A DNA stretch of 37,678 nucleotides from Planctomycetaceae bacterium (GTDB lineage Bacteria; Planctomycetota; Planctomycetia; Pirellulales; PALSA-1355): NCBI GenBank assembly GCA_003153375.1, contig PLYM01000146.1:807-38484 (forward strand), given 5' to 3'. Each line of letters opens with the position of its first letter. Position 1 is the first letter of the stretch. A program made the position numbers and the translations under genes. Of this stretch, positions 18,675 through 23,719 are shown piece by piece. The notes below the pieces were generated by a model, which was not told where the DNA came from, ran no database searches, and worked only from the letters and a program-made list of their open reading frames with translations.

Positions 18675-19133
18675 ATGCTCCAGGAATTCAAGAAGTTCGC
18701 CCTGCGGGGCAACGTAATCGAACTGGCGATCGGCGTCATCATCGGCGGGGCCTTCGGCAAGATCGTCAATTCGCTTGTCGAAGACATCATCATGCCGCCG
18801 ATCGGCGTGCTGCTGAGCGTCAGCCACGTGCAGAACTTCTCCGATTGGTTCTTTCCGCTCGTGCCGATGACCAAGGCCCAGCGCGAGCAGATCGTTTCGG
18901 TCGCCGACGCGAAACACGCAGCCATTCCCACGATCAACTATGGTCTGTTCATCAACAACGTGCTGACGTTCACGATCGTGGCGTTCGCGATCTTTCTCCT
19001 GGTCAAGCAAATCAACCGGTTGGCGCCGCCGGTGGTCAAGACCCGCGAATGCCCGGAGTGCTGCTCCACGATATCGGTCAAGGCCAAGCGCTGCCCCAAC
19101 TGCACGTCCGAGATCGTGCCGCTGGCCGCCTGA
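18675..19133 (+). CDS. mscL: Large-conductance mechanosensitive channel with C-terminal zinc ribbon
   Basis: A 152-residue inner-membrane channel that opens under membrane tension to release solutes during hypo-osmotic shock. The N-terminus [20 protein letters not shown] and [23 protein letters not shown] are diagnostic (TM1 ~15-45). TM2 covers ~90-112. After TM2 the usual C-terminal helix is replaced by a four-cysteine ribbon, CPECC (126-130) and CPNCTSEI (140-147). AGAGGA precedes the start. It is 24 bp downstream of the glycosyltransferase and may be read from the sugar operon as its last gene. Confidence 0.95.
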
Positions 19134-19283
19134 CGCGTTCGAGCCCTAACCCTTCTCGAGTGCCGGCAATGCCCCGCTGCCGCGCGCCGGTCTGCCCGCT
19201 GTTCGCCGATCGCGAGAAAAACTAGAATCCGGGCACGGACCGGATTGTAGAAGACTCGCACCCTATCCATTGGAAACGATCTC

Positions 19284-20288
19284 ATGAGCGGCCCCCAGGC
19301 TCCCCCGTTGGTTTCAATGATCACCGGCTATTGGATTTCGCAGGCGGTCTATGTCGCTGCCGAACTCGGCCTGGCCGATTTGATCAAGAAGGGTCCACAG
19401 ACTCCGGAACAACTCGCCGCCGCGACCAAGACCCAGCCCGAGGCGCTCTATCGCCTGCTGCGGGCGTTGGCCAGCCTGGGCGTTTTTCGCGAGGACGAAC
19501 AACAGCGCTTTGGCATGACCCCCGCCGCCGAATCGTTGGCTAGCGACTCACCCCATTCGCAGCGTGCCGTGGCGATCATGATGGGCGAGCAGCACTATGC
19601 CTGCTGGGGCGAACTGCTCTACAGCGTGCGGACCGGCAAGAACGCGTTTGACAAAATCTATGGCGAGCCAGTCTTCAATTGGCTGTCGAAACATCCGCCA
19701 GAGGCCAAGACGTTTGATGACGCCATGGTGGCCATCCACGGCCGCGAAACCGCGGCCATGCTCGACGGCTTCGACTTCGCGGGCATTGGCACCCTGGCCG
19801 ACGTCGGCGGCGGCAACGGCAGCGTGTTGCGGGGCGTGTTGGAGCGCTACCCGGCGATGCGCGGCATGTTGTGCGACTTGCCCGGCGTTGTCGAGCGGGC
19901 CAATCCGCAAATCGCCGCAGCAGGATTGGCCGGGCGACTGCAAACGATTCCCACGAACTTTTTCGAAGCGATTCCGCCCGGCGCCGACGCCTATCTGATG
20001 CGACATATCATCCATGACTGGAATGACGAACAGTCGCTGCAAATTCTGCGCAACGCGCGGGCCGCGATGGGCGACTCGGGACGGCTGTTGATCGTCGAGA
20101 ACGTGATCCCCGCGGGCAACGATCCGAGCTTTGCCAAGCTGCTCGACCTGAATATGCTCGTGATTCCCGGCGGCAAGGAGCGCACCGAGACGGAATATCG
20201 CGAATTGTTTGCCGCGGCCGGTTTCCAACTGACGCAAATCACGCCGACCCGAGCCGACGTGAGCGTGATCGAAGGGCGTCCGGCCTAG
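19284..20288 (+). CDS. SAM-dependent O-methyltransferase (family 2, plant COMT/acetylserotonin type)
   Basis: A 334-residue methyltransferase. The N-terminal winged-helix dimerisation domain contains AVYVAAELGLADLI and PEALYRLLRALASLGVF (~21-68). The catalytic domain shows SAM motif I LADVGGGNG (171-179) and HIIHDWNDE (241-249), whose HDW corresponds to the catalytic His region in COMT-like enzymes, then LLIVENVIP. Bacterial members methylate hydroxyls of quinones, polyketides or small aromatics. No biosynthetic partners lie beside it, so the substrate is unknown. TAGAAT at 19223-19228 may be its -10. It converges with the isoaspartate methyltransferase gene (25 bp apart). Confidence 0.88.
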   Translation: MSGPQAPPLVSMITGYWISQAVYVAAELGLADLIKKGPQTPEQLAAATKTQPEALYRLLRALASLGVFREDEQQRFGMTPAAESLASDSPHSQRAVAIMMGEQHYACWGELLYSVRTGKNAFDKIYGEPVFNWLSKHPPEAKTFDDAMVAIHGRETAAMLDGFDFAGIGTLADVGGGNGSVLRGVLERYPAMRGMLCDLPGVVERANPQIAAAGLAGRLQTIPTNFFEAIPPGADAYLMRHIIHDWNDEQSLQILRNARAAMGDSGRLLIVENVIPAGNDPSFAKLLDLNMLVIPGGKERTETEYRELFAAAGFQLTQITPTRADVSVIEGRPA

Positions 20289-20313
20289 CGCGTGACGGCG
20301 AGCGCCCAGGCGA

Positions 20314-21534
20314 CTACTTGGAGGCCGAGCGCGGATTGGCCATGCGGACCGAGATTTGGTCGCACGACAGATCGCCCGTCGCGCCCAGCAGGCCCAGCGC
20401 GACGATGCCTACGCGAGCGTTCGGCGGAACCTTGAGATGGGCGCTGCGGCGCTGCCAGTCGAACGTGCCGGTCCACGGGCCCATGACCTGCATGCCCACC
20501 GGAGCGCGGTCCTCGTCGAAGAAACTGACCGAGACTTTGGCGCCGAACTCATCCGAAGCCCCGGCTTCAACGTTCGTTGGCTTCAGCCACAAATCGACGA
20601 CCAGCTCGCTGACTTTGCGACCGTCGACGCCAATCGGCTGCAAAGCCTGGGCGTTGCGGCCGGGCACGCGATTGCGAAAGGCGATGCACTGGGGCGAGCC
20701 CTCGCGGCCCCCTTCCTGGATCGAAGCCTGGCGCAGGTAGTACCAGGCGACCGGCTTGCCCGGCTCGAGCATTTGTTCGAAGTCGCCATTGATGATCGGC
20801 GACAGCGGCTCGCCCGACTGCACGGCCCGCAAGGTTTCGGCCTTGCCGGTCATGGGCACGAAGAACGTCGGTTCGCGCGATTCGGTGACCAGCTTGCCGT
20901 CTTCCTTGCGCATCACGAACAGCGTTTGCTGATAGCGTTCGCCCAACGGAATGATCAGCCGTCCCCCTTCGCGCAACTGATCGACCAGCGGCTTGGGAAC
21001 CTTTTCGGGCGAGCAGGTGACGATGATCTTGTCGAACGGGGCGTGCTCGGCCCAGCCCTGGTAGCCGTCACCGACTTTCGACTGGATGTTCTGATACTTC
21101 AGCCGCTTGAAAGTCTTGGCGGCCCGCTCGGCCAGCACTTCAACGATTTCGATCGTGTAGACTTCTTTCACCAGGCCGGCGAGGATGGCCGCTTGATAGC
21201 CGCTGCCGGTGCCGACTTCGAGCACGCGTTCGTTCGGTTGCGGATCGAGCTGCTGAGTCATCCAGGCCACGATAAACGGCGTCGTGATCGTCTGGTGCTC
21301 GCCAATTGGCAACGCCATGTCGACGTAGGCATACGGACGCACGTCGGGAGGCATGAATTCATGTCGCGGCGTCGAGCGCATCACGGCCAGCACGGCCGGA
21401 TTCTTGATGCCGGCCGATGCCACGTCCGTTTCGACCATCAATGCCCGAGCCGCGGTCCATTGCTTGGCCGTCTGAGCCGTCGAGGTCGCGGTGAACAGTC
21501 CCAAAAGGGTCGCGCAGAGGACGAGAATTCGCAT
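20314..21534 (-). CDS. pcm: Exported protein-L-isoaspartate O-methyltransferase with extra C-terminal domain
   Basis: Methylates L-isoaspartyl residues in aged proteins so they can be repaired. Visible PCMT features: RHEFMPPDVRPYAYVDMALPIG (~57-78), QTITTPFIVAWM, SAM motif VLEVGTGSGYQAAILAG (104-120), and GRLIIPLG. At 406 residues it is about twice the usual ~210. The N-terminus has a signal peptide (~20 residues ending near TSTAQT), and residues ~245-406 form an added region beginning INGDFEQ...AWYYLRQ, which looks like a carbohydrate-binding-type beta sandwich (inference). SAM is not normally outside the cytoplasm, so exported action is puzzling. The gene is single and convergent with the O-methyltransferase. 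Confidence 0.88.
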   Translation of the reverse strand: MRILVLCATLLGLFTATSTAQTAKQWTAARALMVETDVASAGIKNPAVLAVMRSTPRHEFMPPDVRPYAYVDMALPIGEHQTITTPFIVAWMTQQLDPQPNERVLEVGTGSGYQAAILAGLVKEVYTIEIVEVLAERAAKTFKRLKYQNIQSKVGDGYQGWAEHAPFDKIIVTCSPEKVPKPLVDQLREGGRLIIPLGERYQQTLFVMRKEDGKLVTESREPTFFVPMTGKAETLRAVQSGEPLSPIINGDFEQMLEPGKPVAWYYLRQASIQEGGREGSPQCIAFRNRVPGRNAQALQPIGVDGRKVSELVVDLWLKPTNVEAGASDEFGAKVSVSFFDEDRAPVGMQVMGPWTGTFDWQRRSAHLKVPPNARVGIVALGLLGATGDLSCDQISVRMANPRSASK

Positions 21535-21747
21535 TGCCGGGGCCCCGTGAGCAGATGTGTAAGGTTTGGCCGGGCATGCTTTTAGTCGATCCTCGCACGG
21601 CCGGGAAGGCGAATCTCGGCGGCGTCATTCCCAACCGATGACGGGCACAAACTCGAGACACCAGCGGCATGCTGACTCCCCCGGCTCACCGTGGCATGCT
21701 AGCACGGGCCGATTTATGGCCGACGGCCAAGACGCTATCATTCGTCC

Positions 21748-22914
21748 ATGGTTCAATCCAACCGCATGCAGGCCGTCCAGCGGCCCATTATTCCGGTCGT
21801 CGGCGAGTTGATTCGCCGCCATCCGGGCACGATTTCACTGGGCCAGGGGGTGGTTCACTATGGCCCGCCGCCAGAAGCGGCCGCCGGCGTGGCGCAGTTC
21901 CAGGCCGATCCGCAGAACCACAAATACAAAGCCGTCGAAGGCATTGTGGAGCTGGTCGAGGCCCTGCGGCAAAAGCTGGCGGCCGAAAACGGCATTCAGG
22001 TGGGCCCCGAGAGCCAGATCGTGGTCACGGCCGGCGGCAACATGGCGTTCTTCAACGCCCTGTTGGCCATCGCCGATCCGGGCGACGAGATCATCCTGCT
22101 GACGCCCTACTACTTCAACCACGAAATGGCCGTGGCGATGCTCAATTGCCAGGCCGTGCTGGTTAACCTCGACGAGAATTACCAGATTGATCTCGATCGG
22201 CTGCGGGCCGCCATCACCAAGCGGACGCGGGCGATCGTCACGATCTCGCCAAACAATCCCAGCGGCGCGGTCTATTCGCGGGCCGCGCTGACGGCTGTCA
22301 ACGAGCTGTGCCGCGACGCGGGCATCTATCACATCAGCGACGAAGCGTATGAGTATTTCGTCTACGAAGAAGCCCACCACTTTTCGCCCGGCTCGCTGCC
22401 CGGCGCGGCGCGGCACACGATCTCGCTCTACTCGCTGTCCAAGGCCTACGGCATGGCCAGTTGGCGCGTGGGCTACATGGTCCTTCCCGAGGCGCTGATC
22501 ACGTCGGTGCGCAAAGCGCAGGACACGATCCTGATCTGTCCGCCAGTGATCTCGCAGCAAGCCGCCGTCGGTGCTCTGCGCGCGGGGCGAGAGTATTGCC
22601 GGCGGAAAATCGACGCCGTGGCCCGAGTGCGGCAGATGGTGCTCGACGAGCTGGCCGAAGTGCGCGGCTTCTGCACGATTCCACCGGCCTTGGGAGCCTT
22701 CTATTTGTTGATGCGGCTCGACACGCCGCACGATTCGATGACCGTCGTCGAACGGTTGATCCGCGATTTTGGCGTCGCGGTAATTCCGGGCGTCACCTTC
22801 GGCTTGGAACAGGGTTGCTACCTGCGCGTCGCCTACGGCGCGCTCGATGCGGATACAATTGCTGAAGGCACCGGCCGCCTCGTCCGCGGTTTAACCTCGA
22901 TCGTCCAGGCTTGA
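21748..22914 (+). CDS. Class I/II aminotransferase (PLP-dependent)
   Basis: A 388-residue fold-type I aminotransferase. Visible landmarks are SLGQGVVHYGPP (substrate region), VTAGGNMAFFNAL, TISPNNPSGAVYSR with the PLP-contacting Asn, HISDEAYEYFVY, and SLSKAYGMASWRVGY, where K232 is the PLP Schiff-base lysine. The C-terminus CYLRVAYGA supplies the carboxylate-binding Arg. Specificity is open (aromatic, methionine or glutamine transaminase type). The next gene, 25 bp downstream, is an omega-amidase-like nitrilase. Glutamine transaminase plus omega-amidase is a known functional pair, so a glutamine-using transaminase is a reasonable inference. The start has no clear Shine-Dalgarno. Confidence 0.9.
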   Translation: MVQSNRMQAVQRPIIPVVGELIRRHPGTISLGQGVVHYGPPPEAAAGVAQFQADPQNHKYKAVEGIVELVEALRQKLAAENGIQVGPESQIVVTAGGNMAFFNALLAIADPGDEIILLTPYYFNHEMAVAMLNCQAVLVNLDENYQIDLDRLRAAITKRTRAIVTISPNNPSGAVYSRAALTAVNELCRDAGIYHISDEAYEYFVYEEAHHFSPGSLPGAARHTISLYSLSKAYGMASWRVGYMVLPEALITSVRKAQDTILICPPVISQQAAVGALRAGREYCRRKIDAVARVRQMVLDELAEVRGFCTIPPALGAFYLLMRLDTPHDSMTVVERLIRDFGVAVIPGVTFGLEQGCYLRVAYGALDADTIAEGTGRLVRGLTSIVQA

Positions 22915-22939
22915 ACCCGTCACCACGCGGATTGTCGCC

Positions 22940-23719
22940 ATGCAAATCGTCGCCTGCCAAATGGACATCGCTTGGGAGAACAAGCCTGCCAACTACGAGC
23001 GGGCGCGGGCGATGCTGGGCGGTGCGCAGGTCGAGCCGGGCGCGCTGGTCGTGCTGCCCGAGATGTTCGCCACCGGGTTTAGCATGAACGTGGCGGCGAC
23101 CGCCGAACCGGAGGGCGGCCCGACGGAGCGATTCCTGGCGACGCTGGCCAAGGAATATCAATGCTTCGTCATGGGGGGCGTGACGACACAAGCCTTGCAC
23201 GGTCGGGGCCGCAACGAAGCCATCATCCACGGCCCCGAGGGAATCCTGCTGGCTCGCTATGCCAAGCTGCACCCGTTTTCGTTTGCCGGCGAGGATAAAT
23301 ACTTCGAACCGGGCCGCGGGATCGAACTGTTCGAGTGGCACGACTTCCGTGTCTCGCCGCTGGTCTGCTACGACCTGCGTTTTCCCGAAGCCTTTCGTCA
23401 GGCCGCGCGTCAGGGAGCCGAACTGCTGACCGTGATCGCCAACTGGCCGCAGCCGCGCGAGTCGCACTGGCTGGCTTTGCTGCGCGCCCGGGCGATCGAA
23501 AACCAGGCCTACGTCGTGGGAGTGAACCGCGTGGGGGACGACCCTCACGTGCACTACGGCGGACACAGCCTGATTTTGGGTCCGCGCGGCGAAACCCTCG
23601 CCGAGGGGGGGACGGACCCGCAGGTGCTGGTGGCCGACGTCCAGTTGCAGACGCTGGTCGATTACCGGCAGAAATTCCCGGCCCTAAGCGACATCCGGCC
23701 CGACTTTTTCCCCACTTAA
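22940..23719 (+). CDS. Omega-amidase-like carbon-nitrogen hydrolase (Nit2/YafV type)
   Basis: A 259-residue nitrilase-superfamily amidase, expected to hydrolyse alpha-ketoglutaramate or alpha-ketosuccinamate to the keto-dicarboxylate and ammonia. The triad is visible: E41 in VVLPEMFATGFSM, K109 in YAKLHPFSF, and C143 in PLVCYDLRFPEAFR. The MFxTGFSM and KLHPFxxAGE phrases are typical of the YafV/omega-amidase branch. It lies 25 bp after the aminotransferase and is presumably co-transcribed. Together they would remove the amide nitrogen from the keto acid left by glutamine transamination, making transamination irreversible. A GCGGCC/GGCCGC hairpin just after the stop may assist termination. Confidence 0.88.
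   Translation: MQIVACQMDIAWENKPANYERARAMLGGAQVEPGALVVLPEMFATGFSMNVAATAEPEGGPTERFLATLAKEYQCFVMGGVTTQALHGRGRNEAIIHGPEGILLARYAKLHPFSFAGEDKYFEPGRGIELFEWHDFRVSPLVCYDLRFPEAFRQAARQGAELLTVIANWPQPRESHWLALLRARAIENQAYVVGVNRVGDDPHVHYGGHSLILGPRGETLAEGGTDPQVLVADVQLQTLVDYRQKFPALSDIRPDFFPT

What the first reader, a model, noticed from the sequence alone, without database searches (positions are those of the whole stretch)
20314..21534. Isoaspartate methyltransferase with signal peptide and extra ~160-residue domain
PCMT is normally a ~210-residue cytosolic repair enzyme that needs SAM. This version starts with a clear signal peptide and carries a C-terminal region resembling a carbohydrate-binding sandwich. 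Either SAM is available outside the cytoplasm, the protein has another role, or it stays anchored facing an unusual planctomycete compartment.
Basis: partly seen in the sequence, partly recalled or inferred. Interest (0 to 1): 0.52.

Follow-up and report, generated by a model that had tools for sequence, protein, structure and literature searches.

The report
Exported protein-repair methyltransferase with sugar-binding-type module
A planctomycete makes a version of the common protein-repair enzyme PCMT that carries an export signal and an extra sugar-binding-like module, and related exported versions with intact active sites occur in several other bacterial phyla, which raises the question of where they get their methyl donor outside the cytoplasm.

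Summary
The 406-residue protein at 20314-21534 (minus strand) is a signal-peptide-like segment (1-20), a full PCMT domain (about 25-232) and a C-terminal beta-sandwich (about 242-401; modelled alone pLDDT 95; like CBM16, CBM4 and hyaluronan-binding modules, Z 13-16). It is no oddity of one genome: the long form occurs in 104 of 118 genomes of the window's order and 81 of 393 of the phylum (0 of 294 outside the class). By a home-made rule 59 of 66 distinct long forms have an export signal; 0 of 20 short PCMTs of the same class do. A tree of 148 PCMT cores, N-terminus left out, puts every signal-bearing form in one clade (57 of 79 rows inside, 0 of 69 outside) with signals in seven phyla. On 96 unseen loci the core alone predicted export (30 of 44 against 1 of 52). 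SAM- and isoaspartate-binding residues are kept in 70 of 73 long forms; the window protein has one Ser-to-Thr change. Best reading: an extracytoplasmic isoaspartate methyltransferase, in Planctomycetia fused to a glycan-binding-type module. Export is well supported; activity, SAM supply and ligand are inferred.

The parts
20314..21534 (-). whole gene, 406 aa: exported PCMT with C-terminal module
21475..21534 (-). residues 1-20, Sec-type signal peptide, predicted cleavage A20|Q21
   Evidence: rule-based; A at -1 in 39 and Q at +1 in 38 of 65 long forms, motif plus Q in 48 of 65
20839..21414 (-). residues 41-232, PCMT domain (structural match from about residue 25)
   Evidence: PF01135 E 6.1e-59; 3lbf_A Z 31.2, rmsd 1.8, 205 aligned
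21283..21289 (-). codons 82-84 (Thr-Ile-Thr; in part for 82): isoaspartate-binding Thr and Ser positions, Ser replaced by Thr84 in this protein only among 73 long forms
   Evidence: role of the residues from PMC11522691 section 11
20809..20838 (-). residues 233-242, part of a linker of low model confidence that starts with the conserved FVPMTG motif (225-230)
20332..20811 (-). residues 242-401, CBM-type beta-sandwich module
   Evidence: models; matches; profile hit to 8ag9

Best explanation
The gene makes a protein L-isoaspartate O-methyltransferase that leaves the cytoplasm through Sec and is cleaved after residue 20. In the periplasm or on the envelope it methylates isoaspartyl residues of ageing envelope or secreted proteins, the first step of their repair, using SAM that leaks or is moved out of the cytoplasm. 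Its C-terminal CBM-type sandwich would hold it to a glycan of the envelope or matrix, near its substrates. Shown by computation: the domain layout, the export-signal pattern, descent from a PCMT clade marked by export signals in several phyla, kept catalytic residues, and a folded CBM-type module. Inferred: that the protein is exported in the cell, is active there, finds SAM, and binds glycan.
For: Signal by rule in 59 of 66 distinct long forms and 0 of 20 short PCMTs of the same order and class. All 57 signal-bearing rows of a 148-row core tree fall in one clade of 79 (SH-aLRT 95); 0 of 69 outside. On 96 unseen loci, core-only profiles separate 30 of 44 signal-bearing from 1 of 52 (Fisher 4e-13, too small because sequences are related). 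Many short relatives match a (permissive) lipobox, 11 of the 30 strict positives. SAM- and isoaspartate-binding residues kept in 70 of 73 long and 50 of 51 short exported-clade rows. Core and module both under purifying selection, dN 0.16 / dS 0.84 and 0.26 / 1.62 against L319. The syntenic gene of a related genus, L320, has a signal. Module: pLDDT 95, CBM16 Z 14.9.
Against: No SignalP and no experiment. The syntenic gene in the same genus (L007 = L319) has no signal by rule or by eye. The window protein has Thr84 where 71 of 73 long forms have Ser. 9 of 44 unseen 'exported' calls show no signal, and neither of the 2 Pseudomonadota ones does. No known route for SAM to the periplasm turned up. 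The CBM-type fold is common (toxin, phage and meprin domains score 13-15) and no binding site was mapped. No short cytosolic PCMT was found in the own assembly, so this gene might also have to serve the cytoplasm.
Confidence: 0.58

Rival explanations
1. Exported and methylating, but not for general repair: it modifies one particular envelope protein, peptide or glycan-bound substrate recognised through the C-terminal module.
For: The module is confined to one clade of PCMTs in this class and is under purifying selection; PCMT relatives with special substrates exist (NCBIfam peptide-maturation models TIGR04364 and TIGR04188 match the core below cut-off).
Against: The core passes the cut-off of the general repair equivalogs NF001453 and TIGR00080 and not those of the special ones; no conserved neighbour gene points to a fixed substrate; f8 relatives are exported without the module.
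Confidence: 0.2
2. Exported but catalytically silent: a PCMT fold reused as a structural or binding protein.
For: A published precedent: an inactive PCMT relative is a subunit of Paracoccus complex I (PMC11522691 section 11) and is among the best structural matches here (8qby_t, Z 31.2). A lack of periplasmic SAM would favour it.
Against: The residues lost in that precedent are kept here, apart from Ser-to-Thr in the window protein.
Confidence: 0.1
3. Not exported, or only in part: the N-terminus is an uncleaved anchor with the enzyme facing the cytoplasm, or translation from the internal Met33 gives a cytosolic enzyme.
For: Met33 lies in frame at the start of the core and a Met is common there; the own assembly has no other cytosolic PCMT; L319 lacks the signal.
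Against: The Met is also common in short PCMTs, so it need not be a start; motif plus Gln in 48 of 65 long forms; lipobox forms elsewhere in the clade; relatives G304 and G316 hold a separate short PCMT.
Confidence: 0.1

Closest known systems
Protein-L-isoaspartate O-methyltransferase, PCMT/PIMT (PF01135, NF001453; E. coli structure 3lbf)
   Same: Whole catalytic domain, 40% identity over 205 aligned residues, SAM motif and Thr/Asp/Gly positions
   Different: Export signal, about 165-residue C-terminal module, Thr84 for Ser in this member; E. coli PCMT is a cytosolic single-domain protein (recalled)
Carbohydrate-binding modules of families 4 and 16 and the hyaluronan-binding module of 4d0q
   Same: Fold of the C-terminal module (Z 16.1 to 13.2); weak CBM_4_9 hits in 7 of 66 members
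   Different: Under 20% identity, the window's own module has no Pfam hit; here it is attached to a methyltransferase, not a glycosidase; ligand unknown
CI-PIMT of Paracoccus complex I (8qby_t)
   Same: PCMT fold, Z 31.2, rmsd 2.5, 215 aligned
   Different: That one has lost catalytic residues and sits on the hydrophilic domain of complex I; here they are kept and the protein has an export signal
PCMT-erythromycin esterase fusions of planctomycetes (L062)
   Same: PCMT with a large C-terminal addition
   Different: The addition is PF05139 and no export signal is found by the rule

Membership tests
PCMT (protein-L-isoaspartate O-methyltransferase) | Sequence match above the curated cut-off | tested here: met
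   PF01135 199.8 bits over 20.3; NF001453 228.8 over 188 and TIGR00080 206.9 over 159.05
PCMT (protein-L-isoaspartate O-methyltransferase) | SAM-binding motif (E106, G108, G110, G112; D156-G157) | tested here: met
   Present in the window protein; the glycines and D156-G157 in 73 of 73 long forms
PCMT (protein-L-isoaspartate O-methyltransferase) | Isoaspartate-binding Thr and Ser (roles from PMC11522691) | tested here: inconclusive
   Thr82 kept; Ser replaced by Thr84 in the window protein, Ser in 71 of 73 long forms
PCMT (protein-L-isoaspartate O-methyltransferase) | Methyl transfer to isoaspartyl peptides | not testable with these tools
   needs an enzyme assay
Sec-exported protein | Charged start, hydrophobic stretch, small residues at -3 and -1 | tested here: met
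   Home-made rule; 59 of 66 distinct long forms; no SignalP run
Sec-exported protein | Processed protein found outside the cytoplasm | not testable with these tools
   needs fractionation and N-terminal mass spectrometry
CBM families 4/9/16 (C-terminal module) | Beta-sandwich fold of these modules | tested here: met
   CBM16 3oea_A Z 14.9, rmsd 2.6, 137 aligned; CBM4-2 4bj0_A Z 13.2, rmsd 2.9, 143 aligned
CBM families 4/9/16 (C-terminal module) | Sequence match to the family profile | tested here: inconclusive
   CBM_4_9 in 7 of 66 members, best E 0.0016; none in the window's own module; 66-row profile finds 8ag9 endoglucanase at E 3.3e-4
CBM families 4/9/16 (C-terminal module) | Sugar-binding residues and binding | not tested
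   no residue-level structural alignment was made and binding needs an experiment

The most novel reading that the evidence does not exclude
Bacteria have an old, separate branch of isoaspartate-repair methyltransferases that works outside the cytoplasm in many phyla, as soluble periplasmic enzymes, as lipoproteins and, in Planctomycetia, as glycan-tethered enzymes; so a usable SAM pool exists outside the cytoplasm, and envelope proteins are repaired chemically there and not only degraded.
Probability: 0.45. Interest if true: 0.78.

Novelty: new variant of a known kind. Interest (0 to 1): 0.6.

Why it matters
PCMT is taken as a cytosolic repair enzyme that needs SAM (recalled). A clade of it that carries export signals in seven phyla while keeping its SAM- and isoaspartate-binding residues implies SAM-dependent chemistry outside the cytoplasm; the ten searches showed no paper on it. 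It offers a clean handle: a cytosolic and an exported enzyme in the same genome, a measurable substrate (isoaspartate in envelope proteins) and a measurable need (periplasmic SAM).

Tried and rejected
Conserved gene neighbourhood: window neighbours keep their order around the gene only in L007/L319 and L320; among 37 long-form loci with flanks no neighbour family recurred in more than 5. No operon link.

Tat export: a twin-arginine-like motif in 1 of 65 long forms. The module elsewhere in the own genome: only the two PCMT genes, with a weak extra piece inside the second one (E 0.0016) and a weak partial hit at C150 (E 0.0043). Sigma-70-type promoter scan of 20200-21800: none found.

Genomes of the class without the long form: G108 (f7) has a short PCMT without signal (L144); three f8 genomes have an exported-type core ending in FVPMTG but no module, and two of the three pass the export rule (L335, L336; L334 does not), so export probably came before the fusion (inference); three f9 genomes seen have only weak PCMT matches (E 7e-6 to 2e-7).

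Not settled: why L319 lacks a signal. Families missing from the structural lists were not used as evidence.

Full report
What is there. The minus-strand ORF 20314-21534 encodes 406 residues. Residues 1-20 look like a Sec signal peptide ending STA|Q. Residues 41-232 match PCMT (PF01135, E 6.1e-59; NF001453 228.8 bits over a cut-off of 188), and the model matches E. coli PCMT 3lbf_A with Z 31.2, rmsd 1.8 over 205 residues. After a poorly ordered linker (226-242 and 252-261 below pLDDT 50 in the full model) comes a beta-sandwich. Folded alone with 66 aligned rows it reaches pLDDT 95 and pTM 0.89.

What the C-terminal module resembles. Best structural matches: hyaluronan-binding module 4d0q (Z 16.1, rmsd 2.9, 143 aligned), CBM16 3oea_A (Z 14.9, rmsd 2.6, 137), CBM4-2 4bj0_A (Z 13.2, rmsd 2.9, 143). 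Phage tail-spike, toxin and meprin domains score 13 to 15.4, so the fold is common. By sequence a 66-row profile finds an endoglucanase domain (8ag9, E 3.3e-4), and Pfam CBM_4_9 hits 7 of 66 members weakly, the window's own module not at all. It is CBM-like in fold; family membership and sugar binding are not shown.

How widespread. In the window's order 108 of 118 genomes match the long-form alignment at E 1e-60; by my count of the listing the matches of 104 reach the end of the profile (not G310, G321, G332, G379). Across the phylum 87 of 393 genomes match at 1e-95; 81 reach the end: 37 of 40 in the order, 44 of 59 in the rest of the class, 0 of 294 outside it (my count). All 44 are of family code f7. 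One of its genomes (L122) has the same protein as L017, named Planctomycetaceae. Names of higher groups are otherwise inferred from record titles such as Pirellulales (L009) and Pirellulaceae (L019).

Export signals. I had no SignalP. I used a rule: net positive charge, then 9-12 residues free of D, E, K, R, H, N, Q with mean hydropathy of at least 1.9, then a cleavage or lipobox motif; every in-frame start is tried. Of 50 long-form loci (L090-L139) 46 pass; of 20 short PCMTs of the order and class (L140-L159) 0 pass. Nine genomes gave both forms (G065, G124, G156, G168, G172, G180, G202, G214, G226). The short form fails in all nine; the long form passes in seven, and in G124 and G172 it fails the strict rule although it looks like a signal by eye. 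Among 66 distinct long forms 59 pass; those that fail are L007, L021 (cut by its contig end), L022, L094, L121, L134, L135. A cleavage motif followed by Gln lies just before the core in 48 of 65 (L021 left out). One more long form fetched later, L326, also fails.

A clade, not a set of accidents. A tree of 148 PCMT cores without the N-terminus (quick method, SH-aLRT only). Its 28 long forms are a sample of the 66 distinct ones; L054, L058, L182, L021, the two fusion proteins and duplicates were left out. All 57 rule-positive rows lie in one clade of 79 (SH-aLRT 95); 0 of 69 outside are positive. The long forms are one clade (99), with a signal-bearing Armatimonadota protein (L025) as sister. 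Positive rows come from Planctomycetota, Armatimonadota, Verrucomicrobiota, Bacteroidota, Acidobacteriota, Cyanobacteriota and Pseudomonadota. The loci were found with the window protein and so are enriched for this clade. A fairer draw of 31 Bacteroidota genomes gave 29 new loci, of which 1 passes the rule; L194 (passes) and L196 (fails the rule, signal-like by eye) are the two that fall in the clade. So the exported form is a minority among PCMTs at large. All 61 inner branches under 80 are drawn open, so relations inside the clade are unsure.

A test on unseen data. Profiles of the clade and of the rest, from core sequence only, were applied to 96 loci not in the tree: 28 from Pseudomonadota, 28 from Acidobacteriota, 40 Planctomycetota that I picked from the list. 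Of 44 called 'exported' 30 pass the strict rule, 5 more a relaxed one, 9 neither (L306 cut at its end; L226, L230, L268, L271, L289, L299, L302, L303). Of 52 called 'cytosolic' 1 passes (L244, through a start far upstream). Fisher p 4e-13; relatedness makes this too small. In Pseudomonadota only 2 of 28 were called 'exported', and neither has a signal.

Is it an active enzyme? PMC11522691 (section 11) names isoaspartate-binding Thr and Ser and a SAM-binding Asp-Gly as lost in inactive PCMT relatives. Thr, Ser, Asp and Gly/Ala together are kept in 70 of 73 distinct long forms, 50 of 51 short exported-clade rows and 68 of 69 others (the 73 are the 66 plus later loci). The window protein is one of the three long exceptions: Thr84 where 71 of 73 have Ser. 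This keeps a hydroxyl, its effect is unknown. Its syntenic relatives L007 and L320 have Ser. Core and module are under purifying selection against L319 (dN 0.16, dS 0.84; dN 0.26, dS 1.62).

Own genome and nearest relatives. Two complete PCMT genes, both long and signal-bearing, and no short one (completeness 96.37). G316 (same genus) and G304 (same family) each hold two long forms and one short form without signal.

How it most likely works. Sec export, cleavage, folding in the periplasm, methylation of isoaspartyl residues of envelope proteins with SAM from outside the cytoplasm, tethering by the module. The first two steps rest on sequence patterns, catalysis on kept residues, the tether on fold alone; the SAM supply is unexplained.

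Literature. Ten searches listed no paper on an exported PCMT. Passages only were seen of PMC5442454 (R. sphaeroides PCMT predicted without signal peptide), PMC4287336 (a Bradyrhizobium PCMT listed as cytoplasmic), PMC3430611, PMC5705917, PMC8130349; section 11 and passages of PMC11522691. Yin and Harwood 2019 on divergent PCMTs of R. palustris, which may bear on this, is not held. Most subscription papers are not in the library.

Noticed in passing
L062:136-2166 (minus strand); L075, probably L287: Planctomycete proteins that fuse a signal-free PCMT to an erythromycin esterase domain (PF05139, E 8.5e-132 in L062; the other two judged by tail length only).
   Followed up: partly
L334, L335, L336: Exported-type PCMTs of family code f8 that end in FVPMTG plus a short tail, without the C-terminal module: a likely stage before the fusion.
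   Followed up: partly
L251, L253, L255, L256, L270, L272: Acidobacteriota PCMTs whose N-termini match a (permissive) lipobox, so they may be membrane-anchored lipoproteins.
   Followed up: no
window 18675-23719: The block channel-like gene, O-methyltransferase (PF00891), PCMT, aminotransferase (NF004621), nitrilase (PF00795) keeps its order in L319 and L320 but not in more distant long-form loci.
   Followed up: partly
window 20314-21534, residue 84: Only this protein among 73 long forms has Thr in place of the isoaspartate-binding Ser.
   Followed up: partly
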